A stretch of DNA of 64,000 bases. Source: Mytilisepta virgata (lineage: Eukaryota; Mollusca; Bivalvia; Mytilida; Mytilidae). The DNA lies in assembly GCA_028015205.1 (NCBI GenBank), contig CM051514.1, forward strand, positions 35,480,150 to 35,544,149, read 5' to 3'. Below, in pieces: positions 10,901-55,703 of the stretch (within the stretch, counting starts at the first letter, position 1; each line of letters starts with the position of its first letter). Position numbers and translations under genes: made by a program. The notes under the pieces are model-generated. The model searched no databases. It was not told where the DNA came from and saw only the letters and a list, made by a program, of their open reading frames with translations.

Positions 10901-13900
10901 ATCACTAGTCCTATCTAAAATGCAAAACTGTTTTCATTATTTTTACCTTTTCAATGTACTTCAGGCAGACTGGTCTGTTGTTTATTGAACAAATACATCG
11001 TGAATTATCTGACTTACTAGTTACCAAGGAATCACTTGAAGGGCTTGGTAAAAACATATCAATCTTAACCTGAAAATGCACACAAAGAAAAGATAAATAT
11101 ATTTTAAATGATTAGGTTAGATTTTGGGATACAAAACTTAGAATATCAAATGTAAATAGAATGTAAAATCTAAAGAATTGTGTACTTAAAACTTTTTTAT
11201 TATGAAATGAAAGTAAAGAACTATATCTTATTAGTAAATTACAAGTAAAAAAAAAAACGTAATGCTGTACATCAAGGTCGACAGCAACTAAAACCATAAT
11301 TGCTTAATAGCCAATAATTTGCCATCATTTCTTGGCAATGACATTTCTGATACATCAAATAGCTTTGAGTACCATTTTATCTCTACTTTTTTTTAAAAAG
11401 TTGCATATTTGCAATTAAAAACAAGAGTGGACACAAAACGCAGGTGTCATACCGACATTTATCCACTAAGAACTATCTATTGACCAAATTTGGTAGGTCT
11501 AGCTATTAAAGTTGCTGAGAAATCAACCTTATCTCGAAAATGTGACAGTCACGTGCACTCAAGCATGGAATTGAGGTCAAAGTCCAGAGACAGGTGTCAG
11601 ATTTGCATGTAGCCACTAAGAACCATCTATAGACCAAACACAGATGGGTCTAAATATTACAGTTGCTGAATTTGGATGAAAGTCACTCAACCATGAAATT
11701 GAAGTCAAGTTACAGAGACAAGTGTCACACTGGCATGTACCCACCAAAAACTATCAATAGACCAAATACAGTAGGTCTAGATATTACAGTTGTTGAAAAA
11801 TGGACTTAATCAAGAAACTTGGAAAAATGTCACTCCACCATGAAATTGAGGTCAAGGTCCAGAGAAAAGTGTCAGACTGGCATGTACCCACCAAGAACTA
11901 TCTATTGAGACAGACCAAATATGGTGGGTCTAGGTATTCTAGTTACTGAGAAATGGACTTAACCATGAAAAGGTGACAGTCACTAAAAGATGAAATTGAG
12001 GTCAAGGTCCCAAGCCAGGTGTCAGACTGGCATGTACCCACAAAGAACTATCTATAGACCAAATATCGTTGGCCTAGGTATAACAGTTTCTGAGAAATGG
12101 ACTTAACCACTAAAAGGTAACAAAGTTACTCGAGCAGGAAATTGAGGTCTAGGTCCCAAGCCAGGTGTCAGACTGGCATGAACCCACTAAGAACTATCTA
12201 TAGACCAAATATGGTTGGCCTAGGCATTACAGTTGTTGAGAAATGGAATTAAACAGGAAACTTGGATGCATATTTTAAATTCATGTTTATGAAGTCAGTG
12301 AACCATGAATATGCGGTCAGGGTCACAAGACAAGTACATTGTATACTGAGGCAAACCTTACACGATAAACTACCTTGTGAACCATAAATCTTAATTGTAG
12401 GTATTACATGTGCAAAGTTATTAAAGTTTTAAAAAAGTTTACACCACAGCAACTTTTCGTTGCAGGTGAGACAAAAACTGAGATATAAAATCTCAAACAA
12501 AAATTCAGTATTTTTCATTAAAGACAGAAAAACACCCAACAGACCAAGAAAACAGTTCCAGTAAATAGAGAAATAGAATCACTAAAATTCTAAAGAATTT
12601 TTTGTTTGGATACCAAAGGCATTTAAGTTTTCAAGATTGAATGACTGAGGTTCTACAGTACTTTGCAGAAATATAAAATAAATCCATCCCATAATATCAA
12701 TCAAGGATTTTTAATTTTGGCCTTTTGTATATAATATAAACCTTTGAATCATTAATTTCCACAGTCTTCTGAACCAAACCATTCAAAACATTCCTTCCCA
12801 TGATTCCTAATATTGCAGCACGTGAATCATCAACAGCATTTTTCTGGAAGATTTTCTCTTTGTCCTGAGTTAATGTAAATCTAACTTTTGGCAGGATAAT
12901 GCTAAAAGCTACTAGTAAATCCTCAATTCTCTTTAATTCTTCTTTCTTTTTCTTGTTGTTATTATAAAACTGTCTTCTAACAGGTAAATTTTTAAATAAT
13001 CCCATAGCTGTCACTGTAGTTCCTGAAAATAAATTCCTCAGAATGAAAAAAATATGTTCAAAGTCATGAAACCACCCTATAAGACTATTGATAATGTAAT
13101 AACTATTATTTTGTTATTTGTCACACAAATCATGGCTTCTAATTGTTTTGTCCATTTGGGCCTTTTGGTTTTTATTAACTACTGCACATTGTAACTCAAA
13201 GTTTTTAAACATTTTGGGCTGACTTTACTAAATTTAGTAATTGCCACCTGACACTGATATTGATTATTTCTTAAAAATTTGTTTTTCCTTTGCCTTGTTC
13301 TGGCCTGTTTCATATGTCATAACTAAATTTTTATAGATTTCTTTTGGAAATTATTATGTCAGAAAATACGATTTTTTTTGCACTTAATGACCATACATTG
13401 TTGACCCATGTAATGATGCATAAAGCAGATGAAGATGATTTCAAAACCATTCATCGATAATTTCAACGAATATGCTTTTCAATCATAATTGCTATTATTT
13501 ATTGGGGTTTTAGCACGACTGGCAATATCGCTGCAGCCAATTTTAATTGAAGGAGGAAGCTAAAGTATCTGTAGAGAACCATCGATCTACATGATTAAAA
13601 CTGGCAATCACTTATCAAGTAGGATCAAAGTGGAACACACGTCACCACAAGGACATTGGAAGTTTTCCTGCAAAACCATTCACCTTAGAAAAACAAGACA
13701 CTTTGGGGGTTGTATCCATGGTGACAACCCCATATCCTTACATTTTTTTCAACATAAGACCAGACTTCCCATGTCGAAAGTCTGAGGAGTATAAGACACT
13801 TACCAATGTACATATCTTCTCTCATAATTTTTATAACAATCTTGGACAAGTGTCCAGCAACACTTTGAGGGCACAAAGAACATTTCAATATATCAAATAA

Positions 13901-16900
13901 ATAATCACAAACCTTGTGTTAAATGAGATGGATTTGATGACATTATCTGTCCTTGACTGTTAAATTTGTAGGTCAAACTGACATCATCATCAACCGTTTT
14001 GGTTGTTATGGAGAGTGTTGACACAGTACAAAGAGAACCTAAAATACAAGGAATGCCATAATCTTCTTCCTTTCCTCCTTTTTATATTTATTCGATTCTT
14101 TTTAAATTTACATTTTACTGTAAATCTTTTTAACTTCTTGTATTAATTTATAATTTTTTTTTCATAAATTTCCCAAATCCCAAATCTGTGATTGCATTTA
14201 GAAATCCTTTTAAATATACATTATATAAAGTTATCTCATTGATGCTACACTTCGGTAACTTGTTTTGTTGCATGTTGACTGGTGAGATGTTTCATCGAAA
14301 ATGTATTTTTATATGAGATTTTGTATCTGTTCATTGACAATTATCCAGTACGTTCACTTGTGAGATGTTTCATGGAAAATGTATATTTATATGAGATTTT
14401 GTATCTGTTCATTGACAATTATCCAGTACGTTCACTGGTGAGATGTCTCATCGAAAATGTATTTTTATATGAGATTTTGCATCTGTTCATTGACAATTAT
14501 CCAGTACAATTGCATAGATTGGTACATACAATTTTTGTTGTATCTTTTGTTTTCAAATCCTGAAAAAAATTTGGTTATCATATGAATTTTACAGTAAAAT
14601 TGGAATTGATGGAGCCAATTTGATTTTAACAAAGGGTTATTGGTGACTCATTTAGGCGAATTCAACTTTGGGACTCGACAGTATTTTTTGAAAATGGTTG
14701 TCTGGAACTCACCAAGTTTAAATCCTACCAAAAACCCTGTTAACGCACTGACTATTGAGTTAAATGCCATAAAATGTTATAGGGACACTAAGACAGGAAA
14801 CATGACAACATTATTTATACGTTTAAGAAAAAACAAAGCCTAATTCTATGTCAAAATCATGTTATATACCCAAAGCCTCTCCTCTGAAGCCATATGTTTT
14901 CAGGGTCTGGATATCAATGAATGACTTGATTTTAGACGTATGGTATCTCTTGGCAACAAATGGAACATTCTGTGATGGAATTCCACATCCATTATCCCTA
15001 ACTTCCACTTTATCCAAACCATAATTCTCCTGTAAAACAAAACAACTTCATATTATTACATTTACCACAATGAAGACTATTTGTTGTAATACAATAACTG
15101 ACTCCTTTCAAGATAATGCAACTGTCAAATGTTTTAAGATAAGGCCAAAAAAAAAACAATACATGTGTTTCTACTAACATGCTGAAAAAAATAGAGTAGG
15201 TAGGTAGGCAACATCATTTTATTTTACAGTTTTTAGCTGGTTACTACTAGGGAAACAGTCTGACTTTAACAGTACTCATTTAAAAATGGCATAAAAAGTG
15301 TTAGTGTAGGCACTACAAATTAAAGTACATGTAGGTAGGGTTAGCAGAAACACATGTATTTTTTTTTTGGCCTAAAAGGAATTTTGAGAAAACAGTACTT
15401 ACTAAAATACTAATAATGTCGGAAATGGCCCCGCCGACTTGTGTGATTGAACTCATGGGAATCAAAAACGCTTCAAAATCTATATATTCCCCAAACAGTG
15501 TTTTCCGATTTTCCTAAAAATCAAAAGGGACCTTTGTCTGATCTGTCCAACACTGTGTATAAACTTTATGAAAATCTGTGAAGGCAATCAGAAGTTATAT
15601 ACGACATAGTGTTAATTCTCAAAATATGCATTTTTTCATATAAAACTAAGTTTTACCCCAAACAGTGTTTTCTGATTTTCCTAAAAATCATAAGGGACCT
15701 TCCTCTGATCATGTCCAACACTGTGTACAAATTTATGAAAATCTGTGAAGGCAATCTGAAGTTATCATACATGTGTACGACATAGTGTTAATTCTCAAAA
15801 TATGCATTTTTTCATATAAAAATTAAGTTTTTCCCAAAAATTGCTGTCCGATTTTCCTCAGGACTGTCCTTTGGTCAAGTCCAATATTGTGTATAAAAAT
15901 CATAAAAATCTGTGAAGGCAATCTTAAGTTATCGTACGACAAAGGAAATGCTGACGAACAGACTGATGGACGGACAGACTGATTACTATAGGGTGGCCGC
16001 CATTTCATAGTGGGGCCCTAAATATATTTTGGATTTGTTAGATTTCATTGGTTACCAATTTTAATGCTTTTCGTGGGTGCAGTTTTACCATGAATTATAA
16101 TTTCTGACAAAATGCACTTTTATTGTGATTTTTCTGAATAACTCCAAAATGAATAGCATTCTTCCCTTCCCATAGTCAGTTAGCGTTGATTACCACAGAA
16201 CAAATAGTTCTTAAGTTATTATTTAGACAGAAAGACGGAAAGACCAATAAATGAACTGTTGGACGGACAAAGTGATAACTTCATGCTCACAAAAAATTGT
16301 TTTGGACGGAAAGACCAATAAACGTACTGTTGGACGGACAAGGTGATAACTTTATGCTCACAAAAGATTCATTTGGAGCATCAGACATTAAGGAAAATTT
16401 GTAACCAAAGAAAATTAAATTTACGAAATTCTGTGATAAATGGGTTAGAGATGACAACAATTAACTCCATTTTATCTTAAAATACTAAATTTTCCTATAG
16501 ATACATTCATTGGTGTATGGGTTTTTTCTTATTTGAGTTCTGTATTCTACTTTATACATAACAGATAACAGCTAGAAATTTGTTCTTCTTTGTAACCAAA
16601 TTTTGTGATTTGACTAACTACAATAAAAAAAACTAGTATGTATCAATGACAAAAATTACCTAGCATAAATTGATTATTTGCTAATTCATCTTATCAAACA
16701 TCACAAGTATAAATGTATCAGACAAGTAACTACTGGGACGGGGGTCAACCAAAAGTGAGCAGAAATCCTTGAAAAAGATTTTTCTTGGTAAATCCCGCAA
16801 GATTTTCATGAGTCCTAAATTATTTTGATGAATACAGTCAGAAGTTACAAATTGTGTTGGTGTATGTTGTGACGCAATATTTAGGGAAACATAAATAATG

Positions 16901-17959
16901 TTTAAAAATTCAATCAAAACACTGTCTAAACGTATGTACCTTTTGTTGCAACTAATTTCCCTTTCCAATGCTAAGATACCTCAAACTTTAAACAAGAGAT
17001 TTTCTGTTTTCTGTGTACAATTGGAGCTGAGTCAAATAATCCTACCATAGTGACAATGATTAAATATAATAATACAGAAAAGAGAATAGAAACGTGGAAT
17101 GTATAAAAGAGACAAAAACTCGAACAAAGAGCAGAAAACAGCGCAAGGCTACCAATGGGTCTTCAACGCAGCAAGAAAATTCCACAACCGGAGACAGGCT
17201 TCAGCTGGCCCCTAACAATAATGTACACTAGTTCAGAGAAATGGATGCGGGCACACCAAGCATTGTACTTTTCACCTGTAATTATACAATTACAACCATT
17301 ATCAATCAATAAACAATTAGGTATTCTCCTAAACTTCCTGCATAGAGAGACTAGTATTGATTCTAATTAATTGGAGGCCATTTCATTACACCTATTAGGA
17401 TCTGTTCTTTCCAATGACTATGTGGCTAAGGACAACTACGGCTAAGACTGCAGTAGTCAGTTACCTCTCTTTAACGTCTTTAAGCGGTATGGTAACTCAC
17501 AATACAAAAATTCAGATGAACAAGTAGATCAGCTCTATAATTACAGTCTCCATAACTACAGTTGTTTTGATTCATTCTGCAATTTCTGGTCTCTCACTAT
17601 ATCGAATTATCGTGCTACTTAACGACATCAAAAATTATGGCATCAAATTTACATTGAAAAAGCACGTAAATAGCAGGATACAGTGGAAACTGAATATACA
17701 GCTTGATAGAAAATAACAGAGACATATAAAACATCTCTGGCAATTATTATTAATAATAATATTAAATTTGTTCGTTTGTATCAATAAATGTATGACAGTT
17801 ATGTTTCAGTTTTTTTACCAATCGAATATCTACAGTTGTTGCGCCAGCATCCAATGCATTTTCTGTTAGTTCTTTAACAACGCTGAATACAGAGGTTATT
17901 ACTTGTGTGCTGCCTATCAAACGAACCGTTGATTCGTTCAGGGCAGTGAGAGAACACAT
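4852..17959 (-). CDS. PMS1: PMS1 mismatch-repair protein, 5' eight coding exons (partial)
   Basis: MutL-family ATPase; in animals PMS1 pairs with MLH1 (MutL beta) in the nucleus. Joined exons, complement of 17819-17959, 14870-15029, 13913-14038, 12742-13022, 10947-11069, 7045-7185, 5366-6163 and 4852-4938, give 1857 nt (619 codons) with consistent phases and GT-AG ends. Seen: GHKL motif I ([11 protein letters not shown], about residues 30-40), motif II (DNGCGI, 59-64), GFRGEALG (about 94-101), QGTT (about 142-145), the transducer motif LFKNLPVR and the PMS-type segment [24 protein letters not shown] and [11 protein letters not shown] fit PMS1 better than PMS2 or MLH1. Start: Met at 17959 aligns with the family start; an in-frame Met at 17989 would add ten residues. 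The 266-codon exon 7 is an acidic, Ser-rich linker. The C-terminal domain and the HMG box known in vertebrate PMS1 were not found and probably lie beyond the left edge. Confidence 0.93.
5366..6163 (-). CDS. PMS1: PMS1 coding exon 7 (long acidic linker exon)
   Basis: 798 nt, 266 codons, phase 0. It begins [16 protein letters not shown], continuing the N-terminal domain after the HQK of exon 6, then becomes a Ser, Asp, Glu and Asn-rich low-conservation linker, as in other MutL proteins between the ATPase and dimerisation domains. The acceptor AG is at 6165-6164. The donor GTAGGT follows 5366; reading through it would give only a short tail before a stop. Confidence 0.87.
6263..6835. repeat. 45-bp minisatellite in PMS1 intron 6
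   Basis: About a dozen imperfect copies of a unit of about 45 bp (GATGATTTATATTACAGTC, then GACATCAGACTGAGATTTAG), some expanded to 51 bp. Units are multiples of three, so both strands stay open for long stretches (202 codons on minus, 90 on plus). These frames are explained by the repeat and have no protein-family similarity I can see. Confidence 0.9.
7045..7185 (-). CDS. PMS1: PMS1 coding exon 6
   Basis: 141 nt, 47 codons, phase 0 (acceptor AG at 7187-7186, donor GT at 7044-7043). It encodes [17 protein letters not shown] and [15 protein letters not shown], the conserved end of the MutL N-terminal domain with the DPNK loop. The intron between exons 5 and 6 (about 3.8 kb) contains the pogo-like transposon and a SINE. 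Confidence 0.9.
7931..10632 (-). mobile_element. Degenerate pogo-like (Tc1/mariner superfamily) transposon in a PMS1 intron
   Basis: Ends are inverted: CTGTAAATATGGAAATT at 7931 and its counterpart ATTTCCGAATTTACAG ending at 10632, with further matched ATTATTGCGA-type motifs inside. A TA dinucleotide flanks each end (7929-7930 and 10633-10634), the target duplication of this superfamily. The 2.7 kb element carries a broken transposase gene on the minus strand, the same strand as PMS1, within intron 5. Confidence 0.85.
8517..9950 (-). pseudogene. Pogo-like DDE transposase with three in-frame stops
   Basis: A single reading frame from Met at 9950 to TAA at 8517-8519 is interrupted by TGA at 9768-9770, TAA at 9675-9677 and TGA at 8841-8843; no frameshift is needed. 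Order: N-terminal region with a psq/CENP-B-type HTH signature (around 9610-9760), a second DNA-binding segment with [12 protein letters not shown], then the DDE catalytic core: first Asp in NFDQTG, second in [11 protein letters not shown], third in LQSMDLSVN, which lies after the last stop. Two stops are TGA, as expected from CpG decay of Arg codons. It is a dead copy; related active copies could exist elsewhere in the genome. Confidence 0.85.
10690..10857 (-). repeat. tRNA-derived SINE in PMS1 intron 5
   Basis: On the minus strand the head (about 10855-10785) has an A-box-like TGGTCTCGTGGTAGCATGC and a B-box-like GGTCGCGAGTTTGATCTC, spaced as in a tRNA. It is followed by an unrelated body to about 10690. 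The anticodon region is not tRNA-like, so it is a SINE and not a functional tRNA gene. A truncated head of the same family is at 35398. Confidence 0.75.
10947..11069 (-). CDS. PMS1: PMS1 coding exon 5
   Basis: 123 nt, 41 codons, phase 0 at both ends (acceptor AG 11071-11070, donor GT 10946-10945). It encodes the conserved strand around INNRPVCLK, which matches FINSRPV in vertebrate PMS1. It is too short and too far from a Met to show as an open frame of its own. Confidence 0.88.
11421..12475 (+). repeat. Second copy of the 140-bp tandem-core repeat, in PMS1 intron 4
   Basis: It begins ACAAGAGTGGACACA and has about six copies of the same unit as 2631-3600. It ends with TTGCAGGTGAGACAAAAA near 12475, almost identical to the end at 3868-3885. 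It lies antisense to PMS1 between exons 4 and 5. The left GTCTCGCCTG motif is missing, so the 5' end looks shortened. Confidence 0.75.
12742..13022 (-). CDS. PMS1: PMS1 coding exon 4 (transducer domain)
   Basis: 281 nt, acceptor AG at 13024-13023. It encodes [12 protein letters not shown] and a Lys-rich helix followed by the GHMP-fold transducer region. The open frame runs on to 12697, but the donor GT at 12741-12740 after NDSK joins in phase to exon 5 and restores similarity to vertebrate PMS1. Confidence 0.9.
13485..13590 (+). repeat. SINE-like fragment in PMS1 intron 3-4
   Basis: TATTGGGGTTTTAGCACGAC, then GGCAATATCGCTGCAGCCAA and GGAGGAAGCTAAAGTATCTG, resembles a repeat common in mollusc genomes (a GATTGATTGG tract followed by an element with GGAGGAAGC). 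Inverted pieces occur at 25325-25390 and a related head at 44636-44680. The identification is from memory. Confidence 0.5.
13913..14038 (-). CDS. PMS1: PMS1 coding exon 3
   Basis: 126 nt with AG acceptor at 14040-14039 and donor GT at 13912-13911. It completes the split Gly codon, encodes [14 protein letters not shown] and ends at the QG of the QGTT motif. Both ends are split codons that join in frame to exons 2 and 4. Confidence 0.9.
14282..14515 (+). repeat. 78-bp tandem repeat, three copies, PMS1 intron 2
   Basis: Three copies of a 78-bp unit (GAGATGTTTCATCGAAAATG to GACAATTATCCAGTACGTTC). Because 78 is divisible by three, a 93-codon plus-strand frame opens across it. The frame is antisense to PMS1, has no recognisable similarity and is not called a gene. 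Confidence 0.85.
14870..15029 (-). CDS. PMS1: PMS1 coding exon 2
   Basis: 160 nt, acceptor AG at 15031-15030, donor GT at 14869-14868, ending in phase 1. It encodes [17 protein letters not shown] (ATP-lid Asp and Gly residues) and then [10 protein letters not shown]. Confidence 0.93.
15420..16020 (-). repeat. 167-bp tandem-core repeat in PMS1 intron 1
   Basis: Two and a half copies of a unit of about 167 bp (GTTTTCCGATTTTCCTAAAA, then TGTCCAACACTGTGTA). One end reads ATGGCCCCGCCGAC, and the other GGTGGCCGCCATTTCATAG followed by GGGGCCC, with a GACGGACAGACTGA tract before it. It has the same plan as the other tandem-core repeats, reversed. Confidence 0.6.
16195..16370. repeat. Two-copy tandem repeat, PMS1 intron 1
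   Basis: GACGGAAAGACCAATAAA, then ACTGTTGGACGGACAA and GTGATAACTT.ATGCTCACA, occurs twice about 75-90 bp apart with few differences. No coding potential. Confidence 0.65.
17100..17260 (+). repeat. Dispersed repeat fragment in PMS1 intron 1
   Basis: The stretch with CAATGGGTCTTCAACGCAGC and CAGGCTTCAGCTGGCCCC followed by ACTAGTTCAGAGAAATGGA resembles an element I recall as abundant in mussel genomes. It opens a 71-codon plus-strand frame at 17155 that I regard as part of the repeat. Class unknown. Confidence 0.4.
17819..17959 (-). CDS. PMS1: PMS1 coding exon 1
   Basis: 47 codons from the preferred Met (17957-17959) to donor GT at 17818-17817, phase 0. It holds ATPase motif I with the Glu of VVKEL and the Asn of TEN. 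A Met at 17989 is an alternative in-frame start. The mobile element at 18058 begins only about 100 bp upstream. Confidence 0.92.
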
Positions 17960-18057
17960 TTCCCGCGTTATTTTTACCAGGAAGTACATTCGTTACGTCT
18001 TTGGACTTTCTTCAGAGAGAAACGGAAAATCTGGAAAATATTTTATCGCATTTATCG

Positions 18058-18150
18058 GTTACTGGATAAATCGGACCATAACAGACTCGGACTATTACAA
18101 ATTCGGACTATAACAAATTCGGACCATACCGGAATCGGACCACCATTTTT
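18058..18150 (+). repeat. Left terminal repeat array of the 2.7 kb element
   Basis: Four to five imperfect copies of a roughly 20-bp unit built on TCGGACYATAACAAAT. The same unit appears inverted at 20629-20738. The outermost copies pair around AATCGGNCCATAACANACT. Confidence 0.7.
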
Positions 18151-20285
18151 TATGAATAGAAATAAAGTTGACAAATTCGGCCCACCCATCTTTTAACTGG
18201 ATTTCTGTATTCATTCATGTTGCTACATTTGTTTTTTTTTTGTGCATGTATATAAATGAATTAACAAAACTTCAACTTTTCGATAAAATTCTCATTTTAG
18301 GAAAGTTTTAATTTGAAATAATATTTAAATTTATGAATATATTTTAAAGACTTTTAAATAGAGGTAAAAAGTATGTATATAGCAATTAACTAAACATTTA
18401 GTTGGAGTAATTTATTTTTATCTGAATTAACAAAACATTTACTTGGATTGATTTATTTTTTTCTCGATTTTAATACTTTTGAGATTTTTTATATATAAAA
18501 TATATAAGGATAAGAATAAGTAGAAAATTTGTTCCATATTGAAAAAGTTTAATTTTAAAGTTGTAGTACTTATTAATCCCTTAGTAAATTGTCCTCTTAA
18601 AACATGTCAAATGCACATTTTCTTTCTTTTTTGAAACAACTTTTTTTTAATAGTTTGCACAAATATAAGGAAATATGGAACTATATAAGAAACCATGAAA
18701 TTAAATGATCGGAACATGATATAATAATTACATATATTACACGACTAATTATACGAGAGTACAGCTGCTGTGTAAGTATTTGACACCTTTTTACTACAGA
18801 AGATAACAAATTAAGCACTGAGAAATTTTACTGCCTTGGCGGTGGTACTGAAGTAGTAGCGGCTTTTTTTCCAATAAGTTTTACAACTTAAATTTCTTAA
18901 ACGGGGGTATAGTGATTCAGGTGCAAATTTTAACCGATAAAGACTGTGAAGTGGCTTAGGTAAGGGTATATACTTCTAAAAATAGATACCGAGTACGACT
19001 TTGATGTAAAATTAAAAGTATATAAAAGAGCATGAAAATATTCTAAAAATCATTATGACAATGACTACCGATCAGTGTGTCCAATGTCAAAAGAAGGTTA
19101 CATCCAGACAGCAGGCATTACATAAATATATTTAAATATATTTAAAAACATAACTTATTCAAGCAATAGATATAACGAAATATAGTTTGATTTAAAAGCG
19201 ATTTGTTTGTTAACTGTTATATTTATGAAATAAAATATATAATGAATAAATACATGTATATATAATTGGCATTTAGTTAATTTTTGAATTTGAAGGTTTT
19301 AAGTTAAAAGATACAAGCAGAAAACCACACTTATGAGTTCAAAGCAGTGGATAAATACTTGTACACATACTTCTCCTCATCACCACACACTTTGTTTTTT
19401 CTGTGCGATCTTTTCTTAGTTTTTTTTGGTTGTGGTGGTTAATTATCTTTACTGGTATTGAATTCGTGACGTAAGTCGAAAACGTAAATATTCAACAGCT
19501 GTTGAAATAAAATGATAATGAAGTATACATTTGATAATGACAAGAAAGTAAAAAGAACCCTTCGACTGTCCATTAGAACTTTTTACCGTGTTTGTCTTAA
19601 CATAATTAGCACTTTCTTCTTCCCATAGTAAAATACTTGTTACAGGTGAGTACAGGCCTTTGGTGGTAATTGATATTGCTCTCTACCACACAGAAAATCT
19701 CGTGAAAAAAATAAGCCTTTTACTTGTTCAACAGGTATTTTTGGAGAGTAGTTAAAATTCTGTGTTATTTTCCGTTTCACGTTTTTTTTTCATTTAAATT
19801 CTTCCAAAATATGACTTGTTAAGACAGCGTTGCTTCAATAATATCATTGAAATCCAGCCAAATATAAATAATTATCCACCATTTGAAAATCTAAAACTCA
19901 TTTCATCTCGTTATTTGTGAAAAGTAGAACTGATTGGGTCGTGTTGAATTTTGACAAGACTGCAGCCTGATTGAATATAGTGTGTAAAGCATATATATAT
20001 AAAACAAATATTATTCTAGAAATTAAATGCTTTATTCTAGAAATTAAATGCTTATGGCCTTGAAACTGGAACCGTAAAACATACTATTTTTAAGGTTAGA
20101 TTTTGGAATTCTTAAAGTGTTCATAACTATAGCCTATGGTATGGCATCATCAAATCACATGGGCACGACTTCTGGATATTTATTTTACTTTTTATATTTT
20201 TATTTTTTGTTGTCTTCTTTCATGAGTACTTTAAATAAATATTTATCATAGCAACGAAGAGCGTTTATTATTAATGTGTTATACA

Positions 20286-20339
20286 ATCCACGTCCTTATA
20301 CTAAAAAATCCTAGGATTTTTTAGTATAAGGACGTGGAT
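20286..20339. repeat. Perfect 54-bp palindrome
   Basis: Two 27-bp arms with no spacer, centred on CCTAGG; left arm begins ATCCACGTCCTTATACT and the right arm is its exact complement. It sits inside the 2.7 kb element, just before an (AAT)n stretch. The lack of a loop or mismatch implies recent origin or a site that is copied or held as a cruciform. Confidence 0.9.
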
Positions 20340-20340
20340 A

Positions 20341-20480
20341 GTATATAATAATAATAATATTAATCTTTATTTGAAATTACACCTAGAACGGTCAATCCAA
20401 ATTACAATCACACAAATTACAACACAACATTATAACAAAAATGACATTGCATGGCATTAACTGTATTTATAAACATATAA
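20341..20480 (-). repeat. LINE-like 3' tail inside the 2.7 kb element
   Basis: An (AAT)n stretch from about 20345 is followed by ATCTTTATTTGAAATTACAC, the reverse of a TTCAAATAAAGAT end with a trinucleotide tail, similar in plan to 22285 and 23018. No coding sequence remains. Confidence 0.35.
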
Positions 20481-20628
20481 ATTTAAGTCTGAGAGCATAA
20501 CTTTGAACGACGTGAACATTGATTATAAACGCAGAATATTCGTTGTTATGGTAAATATCTATTAAAAGTACTAATGAAATAAGACAACAACAAAAATCAA
20601 TTACCATTCATGTATTAGCTGATAGTTA

Positions 20629-20738
20629 ACTGGTGGTCCGAATTTGTTATGGTCCGATTTTGTTATGATCCGATTTTGTGTAGTCCGATTTGGTTATGGT
20701 CCGATTGTGTTATGGTACGAGTTTGTTATGGGCCGATT
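20629..20738 (-). repeat. Right terminal repeat array of the 2.7 kb element
   Basis: Six imperfect copies of the roughly 20-bp unit (GTCCGATTTTGTTATG on the plus strand), inverted relative to the left array. One extra copy and several substitutions show divergence since insertion. Confidence 0.7.
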
Positions 20739-20750
20739 CCTCATGGAATC

Positions 20751-20891
20751 CATTTATCGCATGCGTTTGGTTGATGTATTTCCGGCGAAAATATAATATT
20801 GTCATTACATTGTGCGCAAGCAGGAGGCATAAAATACATGATATTCTCAGCTTAAAGGATTATACATATGTATTGTGTCTGAAATGGTCAA
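20751..20891 (+). promoter_or_regulatory. Candidate ORMDL first exon / half of a PMS1-ORMDL bidirectional promoter
   Basis: Just right of the mobile element the DNA becomes less AT-rich. It has a CGCATGCG palindrome (20758-20765, like the core of an NRF-1 site), TTCCGGCG at 20780-20787 (ETS-like core in reverse) and TGCGCAAGC near 20813. A GTGAGT donor-like site at 20892 could close an untranslated first ORMDL exon. This is inferred from the head-to-head gene order and the need for an upstream leader exon; no transcript evidence is available. Confidence 0.35.
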
Positions 20892-22284
20892 GTGAGTATG
20901 TCTGTGTTAAACTGGGTCATTGACAACGACAAGTCGACATATAAACGAAGACGTTAAGGAAAAGCAGGGTTGAATATGTTATTATTTTATGTCCAATGCC
21001 AATGGCAATGATTGAATGAATTTTTAAACCATTATATAACACTTGTGGCCAGTCAGATAGTTTTCAATTTGAAAATTAAGGGTATGTCTATTTATCAATT
21101 TAGCTTTTACTAGTTTTAGTGCTCTGACCACATGTTACAAATAGACCATTTGAACAGACTTGCCCTATTTTCACTTCACTCTTCAGCCTAATTGGCTAAT
21201 ACATGTAACTGTGTTGGTAATTACATGTATATATACTGTGTTTTATAGAGTGTGTCAGGATAAATAAGGGGGAGGGTTGGGTACCCATAAAACCGGTTTA
21301 ACCCCACCACTGTTCAAGTCAACTGTTCTGTTATGTTTTGTGTTTTGTGCCGTCTTATGTTATTTTTTTGTCTAAGGCTTGAATCCTGAAGTTGGGTTGC
21401 TGTTATTGATTGGTATGACACGTTCCCTGTTACTGTTTTGTTGTATATTAATAAAACTAATTAAAAGTATGCCCTCTGCCCTAAAATATTTAATGGTTGT
21501 CAATGTTATGTTCATACTGCAATACATGTATCTACACAGAGGTTTCAAAAGTATAAACATCTAAGCTAAAAAATGTTAACATGTAAGATGCATTATTGAC
21601 ATGACAATCAATCAGTGTGGTCTCAGGTAGGTCCCAAAAAATATGGTGCATTAAGGGTAAATAGAACCATACATATATATTTTTATAAAAACATAAATAG
21701 GGAATATGAATCCATAGTTTGTATGAAGATCCTGTCGATTACTAACCAACTGGATAATTGCAATAAGAATAGATAAAAAAAATTTACAAAATATTTATAA
21801 AACATCTGACAAAATGTAAACCAGGAAAAAGAGACCAGAAACCTAAACAAAGAAGCCAGGAAGCTTAAGCTAATAAGCTCTTGATATTTTAATAGATCAA
21901 TGTTTTATGGTTGATAAAATCTATGAGTGAGATAATTTTTAGTCTTTTCCACTATTATAGTTTTTAGCTACGAAAGTCTTAGTCTGAACTTTGGGACATC
22001 ACAAATGTAGTTGTATTTTAGAAAATTTCAATTGTGTACATTTGTACATTGTAGTTGGTACATTTCATGGGGAATAGTTCGTGAAATTGAGGCTGTCTTA
22101 GATGGATAGATTCTTGTTCAGCTGTTGTCATTGTCACAATGGAAGTCAGATTGTCAATGATTTCACCCAGTCAATATGAAAAATAATAGTTTACAGAAGA
22201 AAAAGTTTTTTTTACATTATTCCACTGTTACAATGTATATTCATATAGTACTTAGGATTTTTAACCAAAACTTATACGTACAAA

Positions 22285-23015
22285 CAACAACATTTTTTTT
22301 TTATTTTTAATTTATTATATTTTTATTTCCAACACACATACATATCTATATACATTATAACATTACAAAAACAGTACATTCACATGATATTATCATAATT
22401 TAATACATAAAAGAAATTTTACAACTCGTGTTAGACTTTTTTTATATATAAAAATGATGGAAAAGGGGCTTAAAAAAAAACAAACAAAAAAACAAAAACC
22501 CCCCCAAAAAAAAGAAAGAAAGAAAGAAAAAGAAAAAAAAACACTGCGGGCCTGTCTGGAGGTTATTTCTATCCACATTCTAACCATATTCAAGATTGCT
22601 CTAATCGAAAATAGCATCATAACTATTCCATATATCCATAAAATTAGTAAATTTTTTATTTTTCACAGCTATCATTTTTTCTAGCTTACACTTGTATTTA
22701 GTGTTTCTATTATTGATTCAAGACATAATTTGTTTTTGAAAAATCTAGTGTTATAAATATACTGTTTTGCCCACAAAAAAATTAAATTCTTGGGATCACC
22801 TTTATATAATCTTGTTATATTACCAAACAAAAAATAATTTTTAGTGAATGGTATGCTGATACCATTACCAAGAAACCAATTTTCAAGTTGTTCTATAAAT
22901 ATTTGTACACATCCGATTTTCCTAAAAATATTTGTACACAAGCCACAAATGAACAATTGTCTCCTTTTCTGAAAGACAAAAAGTACAATTTGGATTATCT
23001 ATAATTTTAATTTTA
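22285..23015 (-). mobile_element. 5'-truncated LINE (non-LTR retrotransposon) 3' end
   Basis: On the minus strand, about 22990-22945 reads PNCTFCLSEKETIVHLW, the CxxC...H zinc-binding motif after the RT of non-LTR elements. The frame at 22956-22681 then has LYKGDPKNLIFLWAKQYIYN, a typical C-terminal segment. The element ends near 22285 in an A/T-rich tail and (GTT)n on its own strand. The cysteine/histidine motif and the rest are in different frames and stops interrupt, so it is dead. No RT core is left. Confidence 0.65.
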
Positions 23016-23017
23016 AA

Positions 23018-23110
23018 ACAACAACAACATCTTTATTTCCAATCAAAAGTCCCTCAAGTAATATATTGGTATCTTAAATTGAAATCATGTGGAAGTTCAC
23101 TTTGAAAACT
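23018..23110 (-). repeat. Second LINE-like 3' tail
   Basis: AACAACAACAACATCTTTAT, then TTCCAATC on the plus strand is, in reverse, a GGAAATAAAGATG end with a (GTT)n tail, like the tail at 22285. It abuts the previous fragment, so one LINE may have inserted into or next to another. Only the tail is recognisable. Confidence 0.4.
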
Positions 23111-25319
23111 ATTTTAAAATGATGTGGTGATTTGGAGATCATGAAAACAAACTTTGATTAATTTCCTTGAAATACACAATTTTTCAATAATTTTTTTATA
23201 AAAATTTTTGATACAGAATTCTTAAGTCTCTTTGAACCAAGTAGTATTTCACAGTGTGGTTGTTTGTTAATGATTACAAGTAAAATAAAATAATAAGGAA
23301 ACTAAGAATCAGATGAGGAGATATAGGCTCTAGGAGGTATTCTTGGTAATTAATGTTAAATGTATACATGTATGTACCTGTTTTATTTGGATTCTTGTTT
23401 ATAAGTAATTATAGGATTCATCATTCTCCCTAGAAATTTTTAATTTATTTATTACAATAAATCACAATTATACCCATAAGGGTTGATAGCATTGTGGTAG
23501 AAAAAGGTAACAGATAACTGCATCAAAATACAAAATTTGGTACATTGGGCAAAATAAATAGCACAATGGTGAAAAATTATAGCACAGTAGCACCACTGTG
23601 TCCTATACCCAGGGGTATATAAGCCTGGCGAGAACACAGCAATTACAAGAAAAAAGTTCCTACAGACTTTTTAATATTCATACAAACAACTGCATCATCG
23701 TGATTATAACATGCAGATTGTAATGAAGAAAATGTTACAATTTTAATTTCCTTCTGCTCTTGGTAGTGGAATTTTAATCAATACCAGTCTATGGGGTTCT
23801 TTCATATTTAATTTTTTGTGATTAGGTTAATACGATATTATCATATTATCGCCATATATGACATTTTTTCTTAACCTCAGATAAATACAATGGATTTACA
23901 TGTTTTCTAATTTAAAGATACATATGTACATGTATGCATAAAGACTAAAGTTAAACTGTGTTGTCTTATCCACCCAAAAGACCCCCCTGATAAACATCTG
24001 TTACCTAACTTATAATAATGTTGCATAACCATTACTTTGGAAAATTTGAACAACCCATAAAATAGAAACTTTAATATACATGTACCTTCATAAAACTCTG
24101 TATATTTAATGGGTTTTATAATTTATTTTTTCTTGAAGATAGGGGAACTGTGAAGTGAGTATTAAGGTCTGTATTGTTTGTGAGGATCAAAATCAAACTG
24201 TAAACATGGTAAAGAAAACAATTAAAATGAAACAGTGGTTTTATTAAATGTTACATCACTTAACAAAACTTCAAACTAAGGAAGTTTTAAATGTTTAAGT
24301 GCACTTAGGTGGAGAATTGTTACGTACATGTATATGTAACAACAGGTCCTTAGACATGTTAAACTACTGTTAAAATTGTGGGTTATCAGTGATAGAGCAG
24401 AATCTGTTCTTAGAGCTGAATTGCCTATCGCATATTATTTGTAAGAATCATGCCCACTATACTTCACATTGGTAGAAGTATGTGTGTTTAAGGATGATCG
24501 CTGGTTTAATAGGAAATAAATAGGATTTGAAATAGGTGTTTTATTTTGAGAGAACATATGAATAGTAATCAAATAAGCAAGAAAAAAATATAGGTTCATG
24601 TGCTCATTTTAGAACTATAAGGCCTTGAAAATTTGCAGTAAATGGGTTTTCTCTGGATATTTCATTGTCTTTGCATTGACAACTTCAGTCTCTCAAAGAT
24701 GTATGAAAAATAAAAAGGATTTCATAAAATTTTGTCAAATACCATTTTAAGATATATATGATTGAATTATAAAAGAAAAGGTGGGGTTCATAGGCAAAAA
24801 ATTTCATGTTTAAGAAATGGATAAAACCCGAGGATTACGAAAATCTGACAAAAAGACCAAAAATGACCAGCGAGCATCCTTAATATATTTACCCGCTAGC
24901 CTGAAGCTGAAGTTTAGTAAAATTTTCTTTACTAGAACAGATGATATACATGTGCATATATCAATAGACTAATTATAAGCTACTTAACTTTCATCTTTTC
25001 AATCTAGTTATTTTTATTTTGGTCAGGTAAAATAGATATTTATTGTACCCCAACTAGCCCAAAGTCGCAAATATCTTGTGCATGAAAATTGCTATTAGCA
25101 CAGACTGTTGGTGTACAATTGTATGTATACATGTACAATGTACATTGTACAAATGTATGTAGTTACATTACAAATTTTAATGAAAGCAGTCATACTAAAA
25201 CATCAAGTCATTAACTGAGTTACATGCTTTAGTTGTGCTGTCACAGTTTTAGTTTCTGATAAATAATTTAATATTTGATGTAAGGTGTCAATTGATTAAT
25301 ATTTTTCGTCTACATGTAT

Positions 25320-25395
25320 CTTGCCGTGATATTGGCTGCAATATCGCCAGCTCGGCGTTAAAAAATATTTGATCAATCAATCAATCTACATGTAC
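25320..25395 (-). repeat. Inverted fragment of the GATTGATT SINE-like repeat
   Basis: TTGCCGTGATATTGGCTGCA, then GCGATATTGCAGCC in reverse, and a tail of ATCAATCAATCAATC. It carries the same GGCAATATCG/CTGCAGCC core as 13515-13535, on the other strand. Confidence 0.5.
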
Positions 25396-25536
25396 ATGTA
25401 TCATCGACTAATTTTTTTTCTACTATGACGTCATAAAGGGAATCCCTACATTTTAAACGTTAAAACAATCTTTGGAATTAAATAATAAGGATTAACTGTA
25501 ATTTTGATTTAAGTCTATTCGAAATAACTTCAGTAC

Positions 25537-25660
25537 ATGTGATGCCAGTATGCATGACGTTACTTAGTGCTCACCATGTGATGCCAGTATGCATGACATT
25601 ACTTAGTGCTCACCATGTGATGCCAGTATGCATGACGTTACTTAGTGCTCACCATGTGAT
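25537..25660. repeat. 39-bp tandem repeat, three copies
   Basis: The unit ATGTGATGCCAGTATGCATG, then ACGTTACTTAGTGCTCACC is repeated three times nearly perfectly (one G/A change in the middle copy), with the start of a fourth at 25654. It lies in ORMDL intron 1. Confidence 0.9.
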
Positions 25661-28248
25661 GGAAGATATTTCTTCATAGACTGAAAAAAAATTACAGCCA
25701 GCCCTTTAATATTTTACTTTGGGCTTTTTAAAACTAGAAGTAAAATTTAGTCCCTACATATGGACATAAATGTTTTAACTCAGGTTTTGCAGTGGCAGTG
25801 TGTTTTTGTTCATGCCAGTTGTAAACAGTTTCTTCCACTCAAGTAAAATTGGAATTAAGCATACATGTATATTTCCAATGTGTTGATTTGTCTACAGTTT
25901 CTTTTACTCAGAGAAATTGGAACTAAGCATACGATTCTCCTGGGAGTATTGTTACACCTTATTCATACTAATATGGTTAACAGTATTGAATGTTCAAGGC
26001 TGTTCCCAAGTCGGTCATTATTGAAAAAATCTATTATCAGAAAACTTTCTGTCGGGATCATTCACTAGTAAAGCCAGTGTAAATCATCAGATTTAATAAG
26101 GCCAGATTATTGATTCATACTCTTGGTAGTAACATTTACATGAATAAAAAACAATTCTTGAAAATCTTTATTTCTCAGAGGCTACTTCATACTTTGTTTA
26201 TGTTACCTTAACATTGAGCTGAACTATTTAGAATTTTTGCATTTGAAAAATATAGTTTAGTTTGATGGAAAATTAACTGGAAATATTGACAAAAAAAAAA
26301 AAAAAATAGGATAATACATTTTACTACAAAACAATTACGTTTTGTCAATTTTATTTATTTTAGAAATTATTGATAGACAGACAGTTTAACAATTCAGCTG
26401 GTTTTCTGATGGAACACAATCATAGAAAATTAAGTGAAGTCTCATTAAATGGCTGATTACATTTCCTTGTCTGATAATTAATTTGTGAATGCAACATTAA
26501 ATTCAGTCACAACTGTTTCTGTTACTTTGTAAATGATGAGGTAAGGAATTTGGGTACTTCAAAAACAGGATAGGAGGTCTAAGGACCAGAGGAAAATTTG
26601 GAGTAAATTGAATCTTGCAGTTATATTGGTCAAAATAAATATTTATTTGATTCTTTAGAAATTAAAGTCTTATAAGTAATGAAATGTACTATTGCTGTCT
26701 CTGAAAGTATGTCTCATACTGAATTTACCAAAACATAACTAGGGTGTAACAGTTTCTTACACCAGTGAAATATAGCCCCATCTTTCATATTGGGTTAATG
26801 TACATTTATATAACCTATTCCTTCAATGAACTATGATTTTTCCTGTGTAGGAAAATATCACCATGCGTTAAGGGACATTGGATTAAAAAAATGTTTGATT
26901 GGATAATTGTCCACATGACCATATATCTAAGGAATGTCTTACATGTATGGAAAATATTAAATTACAATAAAAGATGAAAAAATGAAGATTCATGTCATCC
27001 GTAATTCTTTCTTAAGACATTGTTGCTTAGAGTTCTTGTAATAATGTCCTAGAGCAATAATAATTTATCAGTACAGGTATCTTGGATCAGTGTTCTTTTT
27101 AGGTCAGTATGGTACAAAAAATTAAAGATTTTTAGCACCTTTCTGTCAAAGGGCAAGATTTGTTTGTGTCTTTATTCTATGTTGGAATTTTGTACCTAAA
27201 TTTTTATAGTATGGCTTTTTATACATAAAATTGTAAAACTTAGGTCAATGTAAAGTTTTTAAAAATTGAATTTTGTTAATTTTTGTGCCGTCAAAATTTT
27301 CTGGGGAGAGCACTGTGGATGGTAACAAAGGACAAAAGTTAAAGGTCATCTGATCTTGATTCTTGTTTTACATGTACATAGCAGTGCTATGTACAATTAT
27401 TTGTAAGCATGTTTATGTATGTTTAATTATGCTGGATTAAAAAAGAACTAAAACACCAAAGTCTGTAGGCTGTCTGTATAAATATTCTTATACATCCACT
27501 TCTTATTATGATCCATTTTTAACTGGATTTTAATATATAAAATATCTTGTCATTATTACTTAGGCAATGTACATGAGCTGGCGAACATTCAGAACATTGA
27601 TACAGGAAAATCCAATTCAATTTGACACTTCTTTTCTTGTTCATTAGATACAGTATTGATGTATTCTGGCAGATACTAATCAAGCTTATTGAAAAGTATC
27701 AGATGTTTTCAATAGTTTATTTTAAGATTAATTTGGTTTCTGCTTCAGTCATATGTAAAGTACCTGTAATTGTATGTTTTATAATTAGTACAGGTTATGT
27801 TGATAGGAAAAAACATTGATTAACATTTTGTTTATTTTTTTAATGTTCATGATGTTCCACATTTTCAGTAGGACATGATACAATTGTAATATATTTTAAT
27901 TAAATTTCTCAAAATTGTATTCATAAAGTGTAGAAACATACATGTACATTTATATATTCAGTTTAAGGTTTTCTGTCAGATCAATATTGAATCATAATGT
28001 GTAATATTATACTGTACTGTTTTATCTCAGTAAAATGGTCAGCTTAAATGACCAGATATTGAATTATTTTTAAATTTTATATCAGTCTGAAGACTACAGA
28101 AAAAAACTTATGGTATTGTTCAGTCAAACAGGTGAATTTAGTGTATTCTTTTTATTCCACTTTTAAAATGATTTAATTATATTCTTTGAATTCTGAGTCA
28201 GATAATTTGATTTATACCTGTATAACTTATTTGCATGTCTAATTTCAG

Positions 28249-28432
28249 TTAAACAGTCATGAATATTGGAACAGCAACAAGCGAAGAAAATCCAACACAT
28301 GTCTACTTTGGTACACGAGGCTTCTGGATTACATATACCATAATTCTTCTGTTTTGTCATCTTTTGTTATTGAGTATGCCATTTTTTTCCGTGGCTGTGG
28401 CATGGACAGTGACATGTGTAATCCACAGTGTG
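28249..28432 (+). CDS. ORMDL: ORMDL exon with the start codon
   Basis: Acceptor AG at 28247-28248, 10 nt of leader, ATG at 28259, 58 codons to donor GTAAGT at 28433, phase 0. It encodes the N-terminus and the first two hydrophobic segments, ending [10 protein letters not shown]. The open frame continues into the intron to 28510, but the donor and family alignment end it here. Confidence 0.93.
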
Positions 28433-37400: not shown

Positions 37401-40400
37401 TTAGGAAGTCCTTTTTTCAGAGATGTGTCCGATTTCGTTGATTGTGAACCAAGATGGCCACCACAGCAGAACTTAGTTTAACATAGGACCCTATGGGAAA
37501 TTCACTCAAAAATCTTCTTGTCTGAAACCACTAAGCCAATTAGAATTAGACTTGGTAGCAATGGTCCTTAGATGGTCCTCTTTCAGAATTTTGTGCGATG
37601 ACCCAGACTGTCAACAAAGATGGCCGCCACACCCGAACTTAGTTTAACATAGGACCGTATGGAAAAATTCATTGAAAAATCTTCTTGTCTGAAACCACTT
37701 GACATATTGGAGCCAGACTTGGCAGCATTGGTCCTTAGGAGGTCCTCTTTCAGAAATGTGTCCAATCACCCGGATTGTCAACCAAGATGGCTGCCACACC
37801 GAACTTTGTTAAATATTGGACCCTATAGGAAAATTCATTTAAAAATCTTCTTGTGTGAAACCGCTTAGCCACTTGGAACAAGACTTAGCAGAAATGGTCC
37901 TTAGATGGTTCTCTTTTAGAAATGTATCCGTTGACCTGGACTGTCAACCAAGATGACTGCCACAGTTGAAATTAGTTTAACATAGAATCCTATAGAAAAA
38001 CCAGCCAAATTGACTGCAACACTTAAATTTTTAGGTCTGCTCAAGGTGAAAAGTTAAATCCAGGTGAGTGATACAGGCTCTTGAGAGCCTCTAGTTTATA
38101 TCAAGGCTCTTGAAGTAAACTGGATATTTTGTGCAAGATAATCTACTCACACAATGGTAAAAATTATATTTTGTATTTTTTTTTTCATTTTCAGTTTACA
38201 TACATAATGTTGCACAACACAAAAGGGACCCCATTTGGAACCCCAGAACAGGGAAAAGCAAGAACACAAACCACATGGGAACAGATTGATTGTGGACAAC
38301 AGTTTACACCAACGAGAAAATTTTTGACTATTGTGCCTATAGTGTTGTAAGTTTGAAGGAGTACTGAAAATGAAGCACAATCTTGTTAACTCAACTGGCT
38401 TTAAGATATTAAAAGGCCATGTGAGTTTGTCGTCACTCAATCTCTGTCATCCTCCCATTGTCAAGTCATATTTATGCAAAATTATTCTTCTTTGAAACCA
38501 CTGGACTAATTAGCATCAATGTGAGTGGTCTAATGGTCTGTATATCTTTTGATGATTTTCACTTTTGTTGTTCCAGAGTTATGGAACTTACTTTGTCCAA
38601 ATATGAGCAATTTTTCACGTGTCGTGCACTAACTGCAGTATGCCTTGACTGATTTTTTTATACGCCCGTCAAAATTTAGACGGGACGTATAATGGTATAC
38701 AAATGTCCTCTGTCCGTCTGTCTGTCTGTCGTGCCATCTGTCCGTCGTAAACATGTCGCACCGTAACTTGAGAACGACTCATCCAAATTTCACGAAACTT
38801 AACATGGTTGTTTCGTATGATGGTCAAACGATCTGTGTACTTTTTGGTGAAAATAAGATTAAAACTTTTTGAGTTACGGGACTTTGTAACTAAAACAGAA
38901 GTGTGTTTTTTTTTCACATGTCGCGCCGTATCTCAAAAACGATTTATGATTATTGCTTAAAACTTTATACACTTCTTAGTTATATTAATCTAAAGATCTG
39001 TATACTTTTTGGTGGTGATTCAAAATTTTATTTTAGAATTTTTTAGTTTTTTGTAAAAAAAAAAGGGGACGGGGGGGGTTTCACATGTTGCGCCGTGTCT
39101 CAAAAACGATTTATGATTATTGCTTAAAACTTTATACACTTCTTAGTTATATTAATCTAAAGATCTGTATACTTTTTGGTGATGATTCAAAATTTTATTT
39201 TAGAGTTATTGAGTTTTTGGAAAAAAAAAGGGGCGTTTTCACATGTCTTGCCGTATCTCAAAAACGATTTATGATTATTGCATAAAACTTTACACACTTC
39301 TTAGTTATATTAATCTGAAGATTTGTATACTTTTTCGTGATGATTCTTTATTTTATTTTTGAGTTATTGAAATTTAATTGAGCTTTTTGGTAAAAAAAGG
39401 TAGTCTTTTTTGGTCACATTTTGCGCCGTGTCTCTATTGCTTAAAAGTTTACACACTTATGTTTTGCCGGGTTTCCATGTACATCCCACCAGCAGCTCCA
39501 CTAAATAAAGGAGGATTCCAAAAACATTTATTATGTTTTTTTCACAAGACGACCGGCGTATCATGCGCTCGTGGCGCAGCTGTTTATTTCTAACTTCTAC
39601 ACATTCTTACAAATGGTGGTCTGAAAGTGTGTATACTTTTCGATGATTTTTGCTTTTGTCTTTACAGAATTACGGGACTTAGATTGTCCAAATATAAGCA
39701 AGTACGCCTTGACTGATTTTTGTGAAACTTTTACACATTCTTACAAATGGGGGTCTGAGGGTCTGTATACTTTTTGACAATTTCCAAATATAAGCAATTT
39801 TTTTATAAATATAAAATTTTCTGCTTACACAAAGATGACATTTGGTTTGTTGTTACACTGTTATACAAATGTAATATAGATATGTTAACCCTTTGAAAAA
39901 GTAACATGACACTTAATTTACTAAAACAAAATCAATATTTTCCTATCGGGCGTGTATCATGCGCATGCCCATGAGGCACAGCTGTTTATTTTTTCAAGAA
40001 GTTCAAACCATATTGAATTTTAGGACAAACCTGGTTTTTATATGACCGCAAAATTTTTGCGGTCGTATATTGGTATGACGTTGGCGTCGTCGTCGTCGTC
40101 GTCCTCGTCTGCGTCGTCGTCAGCGTCATCGTCCGAAGACATTTGGTTTTCGCACTATAACTTTAGTATAAGTTAATAGAAATCTATGAAATTTAAACAC
40201 AAGGTTTATGACCACAAAAGGAAGGTTGGGATTGATTTTGGGAGTTTTGGTCCCAACAGTTTAAGAATCAGGGGCCAAAAAAGGGCCCAATAAGCATTTT
40301 TCTTGGTTTTCGCACAATAACTCTAGTATAAGTAAATAGAAATCTATGAAATTTTAACACAAGGTTTATGACCACAAAAGGAAGGTTGGGATTGTTTTTG

Positions 40401-55701: not shown

Positions 55702-55703
55702 CT

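What the first reader, a model, noticed from the sequence alone, without database searches (positions are those of the whole stretch)
17819..28432. PMS1 and ORMDL head to head: conserved microsynteny with vertebrates
The first PMS1 coding exon (minus) and the first ORMDL coding exon (plus) face away from each other with no gene between. In human, PMS1 and ORMDL1 are divergent neighbours at 2q32 with adjoining 5' ends (established knowledge). Finding the pair in a mollusc-like genome suggests the arrangement predates the protostome-deuterostome split and that a shared promoter has kept it together, linking a DNA-repair gene to a sphingolipid regulator.
Basis: partly seen in the sequence, partly recalled or inferred. 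Interest (0 to 1): 0.75.

Follow-up and report, generated by a model that had tools for sequence, protein, structure and literature searches.

The report
Ancient PMS1-ORMDL pair, transposon between them
In a mussel, a DNA-repair gene and a lipid-regulator gene sit back to back as they do in people, and a jumping DNA element has landed between their starting points, so the locus can be used to test whether the two really need a shared switch.

Summary
PMS1 coding exon 1 (minus, 17819-17959) and ORMDL coding exon 1 (plus, 28249-28432) diverge, 10,299 bp between the ATGs, in a mytilid mussel. No coding gene was found between them. Its flanks have high CpG and E2F-, ETS- and NRF1-like sites, and may be one former promoter; ORMDL probably starts just right of the element and splices over about 7.4 kb. 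Such CpG peaks are not rare in the window, and no transcript data were available. Conservation: of 8 molluscs with both proteins in the capped hit lists, 7 have both on one contig; linkage is close in M. coruscus and the scallop, near in a unionid; Pinctada has different contigs, and Solemya's locus tags are 1,420 apart. Ancient linkage is well supported; "a shared promoter keeps them together" is not shown, and here the presumed promoter is interrupted. New member of a known kind, with a useful natural experiment.

The parts
17819..17959 (-). PMS1 coding exon 1 (ATG 17959-17957)
   Evidence: 79% identical to Mytilus californianus PMS1 residues 1-47; donor GTAAAA
14870..15029 (-). PMS1 coding exon 2 (ATPase, DNGCGI and GFRGEAL motifs)
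13913..14038 (-). PMS1 coding exon 3
12742..13022 (-). PMS1 coding exon 4 (donor approximate)
10947..11072 (-). PMS1 coding exon (approximate edges)
7042..7188 (-). PMS1 coding exon (DNA_mis_repair domain, approximate edges)
5378..6160 (-). PMS1 linker exon (approximate edges)
11..130 (-). PMS1 exon with the first part of the HMG box (approximate edges); the gene continues left of the window to about -17497
17960..18056 (.). left part of the inferred former promoter: 97 bp, 6 CpG, E2F-like TTTCCCGCG at 17959-17967, ETS-like CCAGGAAGT at 17977-17985
   Evidence: motif names recalled; inferred
18049..18056 (+). target-site duplication, left copy
18057..20750 (+). 2,694-bp non-autonomous DNA transposon with 16-bp subterminal repeat arrays
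   Evidence: 265 matching pieces in the genome, a lower bound; ends and 8-bp duplications in other copies
20751..20758 (+). target-site duplication, right copy
20759..20891 (.). right part of the inferred former promoter and ORMDL non-coding exon 1, ending at donor CAA|GTGAGT; NRF1-like core CGCATGCG at 20758-20765, ETS-like TTTCCGGC at 20779-20786
   Evidence: inferred, no transcripts
28249..28432 (+). ORMDL coding exon 1 (ATG 28259), acceptor TCTAATTTCAG just upstream
38195..38346 (+). ORMDL coding exon 2
42890..43025 (+). ORMDL coding exon 3 with stop

Best explanation
This is an old divergent gene pair, PMS1 and ORMDL, that once started from one short CpG-rich promoter lying within about 200 bp upstream of the PMS1 ATG. 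ORMDL is most likely still transcribed from its right half near 20.8 kb, with a non-coding first exon ending near 20891 that is spliced over about 7.4 kb to the ATG exon at 28249. A 2.7-kb DNA transposon inserted 97 bp upstream of the PMS1 ATG, so PMS1 now probably starts from the remaining 97 bp (E2F- and ETS-like sites) or from the element. Shown: the two genes, their orientation, the insertion with its duplication, the base composition and motifs. Inferred: the transcription starts, the ORMDL 5' exon and past sharing. The pair has stayed linked in several molluscs, either because the promoter was shared for most of that time or because breaks there are rare.
For: Gene models and homology. 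The element has 265 matching pieces in the genome (a lower bound), clean ends and a perfect 8-bp duplication here. Of 20 copies put through a script, 18 had both ends, and 14 of these (13 of 17 without the window's own) have 8-bp flanking duplications with at most 1 mismatch, against 1.8% expected per copy by chance; two of the four misses show a duplication by eye. CpG observed/expected is 1.29 over the 470 bp of joined flanks, which include coding exon 1, against 0.27 over 20991-28248. CGCATGCG and TTTCCCGCG each occur once in the window, 0.04 expected. An acceptor sits 10 nt before the ORMDL ATG, and the best-scoring donor in 20759-21500 is at 20891.
Against: No transcript or start-site data. 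CpG-rich 300-bp stretches are not rare here: those near 39.9, 46.4, 60.2 and 62.2 kb have more CpG (20-21) than the one at 17851-18150 (17), and the transposon itself has an observed/expected ratio of 0.95. Donors as good as the one at 20891 occur 0.28 times per kb on the plus strand. Donor scoring used recalled frequencies; a minus-strand donor at 20809 scores 2.72, better than three of the four known PMS1 donors tested, so PMS1 splicing across the element is not excluded. The motifs are short, their names recalled. DNA of related species around the pair was not available, so the former promoter cannot be shown to be conserved.
Confidence: 0.55

Rival explanations
1. The adjacency is a neutral relic: each gene has always had its own promoter, and the pair stays together only because few rearrangements have hit this spot.
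For: The insertion was tolerated here, and Pinctada imbricata has the two genes on different contigs; Solemya has locus tags 1,420 apart on one contig. The OSGEPL1-like gene, next to ORMDL1 in human, lies 5.7 Mb away on the same contig here, so local order does decay while chromosome linkage stays.
Against: The two flanks of the element are both CpG-rich, and there is no CpG-rich stretch near the ORMDL ATG; outside the element, the one other 200-bp step between the genes with a ratio above 1 is at 25300 and looks like a repeat by eye.
Confidence: 0.25
2. The promoter is still shared: PMS1 transcripts start right of the element and splice over it to an acceptor upstream of the ATG, as human PMS1 has an intron in its 5' UTR.
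For: A human PMS1 SNP named c.-21+639 implies a 5' UTR intron ending 20 nt before the ATG (PMC7432688 passages). A possible acceptor, TTTCTCTCTGAAG, lies about 50 nt upstream of the mussel ATG (by eye), and a minus-strand donor at 20809 scores better than three of four known PMS1 donors.
Against: That donor is weak in absolute terms (2.72 against 9.3 for the plus-strand one at 20891); the E2F- and ETS-like sites left of the element would suit a start there.
Confidence: 0.17
3. The pair in mussel and in vertebrates is a coincidence, assembled twice.
For: Divergent pairs are said to have arisen independently in insects and vertebrates (PMC2670823 abstract).
Against: Close linkage also in M. coruscus and Mizuhopecten, and near-adjacent locus tags in Sinanodonta; two given genes meeting by chance in molluscs and again in vertebrates is very unlikely.
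Confidence: 0.02
4. An unrecognised gene (for instance a lncRNA) starts between the two.
For: Only ORF, Pfam and Rfam evidence was used; no transcripts.
Against: No ORF of the ten scanned reached a Pfam cut-off, no Rfam or tRNA match in the window, low CpG through 21-28 kb apart from one spot.
Confidence: 0.05

Closest known systems
Human ORMDL1-PMS1 divergent neighbours at 2q32
   Same: Same two genes next to each other; PMS1 5' end towards ORMDL1 (SNP positions in PMC4146590; ORMDL1 strand recalled).
   Different: In human OSGEPL1 and ANKAR follow on the ORMDL1 side; here an OSGEPL1-like gene is 5.7 Mb away. Human has three ORMDL paralogues (recalled), the mussel one locus. In the mussel a transposon lies between the starts.
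Bidirectional promoters / divergently paired genes
   Same: Divergent orientation; flanks of the insert have high CpG and NRF1-, ETS- and E2F-like sites; a DNA-repair gene as one partner (a passage of PMC2871058, says such promoters are often associated with DNA-repair genes).
   Different: Defined by starts less than 1 kb apart (PMC2670823 abstract). Here the coding starts are 10.3 kb apart and the inferred start regions about 2.8 kb apart.
hAT-like non-autonomous DNA transposons (by 8-bp duplication; superfamily recalled)
   Same: 8-bp target-site duplication, terminal inverted similarity, subterminal repeats, no coding capacity seen.
   Different: No transposase was found or sought to assign the superfamily; the ends GGTTACTGG/GATTCCATG do not match a family known to me.

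Membership tests
PMS1 (MutL homologue with HMG box) | MutL-type ATPase and mismatch-repair domains | tested here: met
PMS1 (MutL homologue with HMG box) | HMG box between N- and C-terminal parts | tested here: met
   PF00505 E 5.4e-15 on two joined exons; their place in the gene
PMS1 (MutL homologue with HMG box) | closest to PMS1 rather than PMS2 or MLH1 | tested here: met
   among the 120 shown of 7,761 hits none is named PMS2, MLH1 or MLH3; no tree was built
ORMDL | full PF04061 domain in a protein of about 153 aa | tested here: met
   E 1.2e-49 over positions 2-135 of 135
Divergent gene pair with bidirectional promoter | opposite strands, 5' ends adjoining, no gene between | tested here: met
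   (coding genes only)
Divergent gene pair with bidirectional promoter | transcription starts within 1 kb | tested here: inconclusive
   starts not mapped; the inferred start regions lie about 2.8 kb apart because of the insertion and would be within about 0.3 kb without it
Divergent gene pair with bidirectional promoter | co-regulated expression or promoter activity both ways | not testable with these tools
   no expression data
Microsynteny older than the protostome-deuterostome split | pair linked in several molluscs and in vertebrates | tested here: met
   same contig in 7 of 8 molluscs with both proteins in the capped lists, and in 1 of 1 vertebrate with ORMDL1 and PMS1 both listed with contigs; human order
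Microsynteny older than the protostome-deuterostome split | adjacent and divergent in most bilaterians | not testable with these tools
   gene order and strand of other animals cannot be read; Pinctada (different contigs) and Solemya (distant locus tags) count against
hAT superfamily transposon | 8-bp target-site duplication | tested here: met
   14 of 18, the window's own included
hAT superfamily transposon | hAT transposase of the mobilising partner | not tested
   the largest ORF wholly inside the element is 77 aa; no autonomous partner was sought

The most novel reading that the evidence does not exclude
A bilaterian-old shared promoter has been physically split by a recent transposon in this mussel while both genes look usable, so the pairing is not held by a need for one common core promoter. 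Comparing this lineage with mussels lacking the insert would separate promoter sharing from mere linkage as the cause of deep microsynteny.
Probability: 0.35. Interest if true: 0.55.

Novelty: new member of a known kind. Interest (0 to 1): 0.42.

Why it matters
Why some unrelated neighbours stay together for more than half a billion years is an open question, and shared promoters are the usual guess. Here the guess can be tested, because an insertion lies between the two sides of the presumed promoter in one lineage. If both genes are expressed normally, shared control is not essential; if PMS1 or ORMDL expression shifted, it matters.

Tried and rejected
Considered and rejected: that the minus-strand gene is PMS2 or MLH1 (HMG box and best hits); that the 10 kb hides a coding gene; that the inverted repeats at 18.07 and 20.7 kb are promoter elements (they are the subterminal arrays of a multicopy transposon). 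Tried and of little use: a 33-aa search to tell OSGEPL1 from OSGEP (one hit at E 0.97), then NCBIfam models, which score the bacterial/mitochondrial TsaD models above archaeal Kae1; a third protein search meant to leave out vertebrates by length, where my filler was too short and vertebrates filled much of the list; Pfam scans of 9 long ORFs, 8 in the 100-kb flanks and 1 in the window (44074-44439), which gave no match above a cut-off (weak ones: PH_SMPa E 0.0014, Myb E 0.0074). These 9 were picked by me from 40 ORFs of 115 aa or more outside 1-44000, retroelement-like ones left out. Literature: the listings (several capped: 20 of 58, 20 of 690, 15 of 163, 20 of 26) showed no paper, by title or abstract start, on this pair outside vertebrates or on a PMS1-ORMDL1 bidirectional promoter. 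Supplementary tables, where such a pair may well be listed (for instance Table S5 of PMC2871058), could not be opened.

Set aside before the linkage count, which I made by reading the lists: species with only one of the two proteins listed; vertebrates whose listed ORMDL is paralogue 2 or 3 (Ranitomeya imitator, Calonectris borealis, Centrocercus urophasianus, Tupaia chinensis); rows without contig lengths or clear paralogue (for instance Manis javanica, Myodes glareolus, Cyprinus carpio). In one search the 20 copies were chosen by me (L030 and L031 not used); 2 lacked an end. Of the 4 failures, L026 and L027 have duplications visible by eye, where the script had misplaced the right end; L037 and L042 have none and share crossed flanks.

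Full report
What is there. The window lies at bases 35480150-35544149 of a 56.1-Mb contig (C7) in a 1.03-Gb, 109-contig genome. The closest listed ORMDL protein is from Mytilus coruscus at 94% identity, and the two best PMS1 hits are from Mytilus californianus and M. coruscus at 52% over the query. So the animal is a mytilid mussel, probably not of the genus Mytilus (inference).

ORMDL. Coding stretches on the plus strand, 28259-28432, 38195-38346 and 42890-43025, join through GT..AG introns into a 153-aa protein. It matches PF04061 end to end and ORMDL3 over all 153 residues. The three matches found in the genome are these three exons. An acceptor ends at 28248, 10 nt before the ATG, so the transcript begins further upstream unless that site is unused.

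PMS1. The minus-strand gene was followed with the Mytilus californianus protein through 14 aligned pieces from 17959 to about -17497, that is, 17.5 kb beyond the window; residues 610-643 and 723-747 of 1009 were not covered. It has the MutL ATPase part, the mismatch-repair domain (PF01119 at 7 kb) and the HMG box typical of PMS1. The first coding exon is 17819-17959. How many other MutL genes the genome holds could not be measured, because the search machine did not answer.

Between them. The two ATGs are 10,299 bp apart. None of ten ORFs scanned reached a Pfam cut-off (two that overlap the coding exons were not scanned), and neither ARAGORN nor Rfam reported anything in the window. But 18057-20750 is a transposon: a search with 18000-21000 gave 265 matching pieces, a lower bound since 40 of 1,918 candidates were scored. 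Its ends are the same as in other copies, and it is flanked by CATTTATC on both sides. In a script over 20 copies chosen from that list, the window's own included, 18 had both ends and 14 of these had 8-bp flanking duplications with at most one mismatch, where 1.8% would be expected per copy by chance. The element carries a nested 406-bp inverted repeat; the largest ORF wholly inside it has 77 aa. The four best matches elsewhere are 93-98% identical, so the insertion looks recent on the scale of bivalve evolution (inference).

The former promoter. With the flanks put together as before the insertion, CpG observed/expected is 1.29 over 470 bp, part of it coding exon 1, against 0.27 for 20991-28248 and 0.95 for the element. 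Against reading too much into this, stretches near 39.9, 46.4, 60.2 and 62.2 kb are richer in CpG. Outside the element, the only other 200-bp step between the genes with a ratio above 1 is at 25300, which looks like a repeat by eye. The NRF1-like core CGCATGCG (20758-20765) and the E2F-like TTTCCCGCG (17959-17967, at the PMS1 ATG) each occur once in 64 kb, with 0.04 expected; factor names are recalled. ETS-like sites lie at 17977-17985 and 20779-20786 (sequence). Without the insert the NRF1-like core would lie about 100 bp upstream of the PMS1 ATG. The best-scoring plus-strand donor in 20759-21500 is at 20891, but equally good ones occur 0.28 times per kb, so it is suggestive only. On the minus strand a donor at 20809 scores 2.72, low, yet better than three of the four known PMS1 donors, so PMS1 splicing over the element stays open (scoring frequencies recalled).

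Other species. No animal genomes can be read with these tools, but the protein search lists the longest contig for each hit, which gives linkage. Reading the capped lists, eight molluscs have both proteins. Seven have both on a contig of the same length: M. coruscus (2,291,341), Mizuhopecten (410,267), Sinanodonta (89,977,916; locus tags 023142 and 023145), Haliotis (46,781,487; the ORMDL row is a cluster of H. cracherodii and H. rufescens), Liolophura (32,819,725), Mactra (37,457,582) and Solemya (143,507,038; locus tags 015285 and 016705, so probably not adjacent). Pinctada imbricata has them on different contigs (114,981,146 and 91,661,170). Only the first three show close or near linkage; for the other chromosome-sized contigs sharing one is weak evidence. 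Among vertebrates, the one species I found with ORMDL1 and PMS1 both listed with contigs, Caloenas nicobarica, has both on a 42,827,701-base contig. Human order is readable from SNP positions in PMC4146590: ANKAR 190.31, OSGEPL1 190.32, ORMDL1 190.34-190.35, end of the PMS1 5' UTR 190.36, PMS1 SNPs to 190.39 Mb; the strand of ORMDL1 is recalled. In the mussel an OSGEPL1-like gene lies 5.7 Mb away on the same contig, so the wider neighbourhood has been shuffled while the pair stayed.

Judgement. It was too quick about a shared promoter: that step rests on CpG content and motifs only, one mollusc has the genes on separate contigs and another has them far apart, and in this mussel the presumed promoter is interrupted by a transposon. 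That interruption is the most useful thing in the locus, because it lets shared control be tested. Papers seen: passages of PMC11015039, PMC7432688, PMC2871058 and PMC4146590 (and its section 9), the abstract and outline of PMC2670823, and search listings for the rest. No paper on this pair outside vertebrates was seen in the eight search listings, several of them capped; supplementary tables are not excluded.

Noticed in passing
window 20196-20601: A 406-bp inverted-repeat element (63-nt arms, 84% complementary, inner 47-nt palindrome arms) nested inside the transposon; folds as single-stranded DNA with z -14.3.
   Followed up: partly
window 52862-56977, minus: DIRS-like retroelement downstream of ORMDL: tyrosine-recombinase ORF (PF00589) and a 724-aa ORF that looks like reverse transcriptase/RNase H by eye.
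   Followed up: no
window 8517-9986, minus: Pogo/Tigger-like transposase remains in a PMS1 intron (HTH_Tnp_Tc5 match below cut-off).
   Followed up: no
window 25536-25661, 29767-30113, 37007-38000, 40602-41400: Tandem arrays: 39 bp x 3.2, 30 bp x 11.6, 167 bp x 6, 261 bp x 3.1; the last three lie in ORMDL introns.
   Followed up: no
G000:C7:41202674-41211016 (L034, L035): OSGEPL1-like exons 5.7 Mb from the pair on the same contig; in human OSGEPL1 is next to ORMDL1.
   Followed up: partly
L037 and L042: Two copies of the transposon on C5, about 0.37 Mb apart and in opposite orientation, lack target-site duplications but share crossed flanks, suggesting an inversion between them.
   Followed up: no
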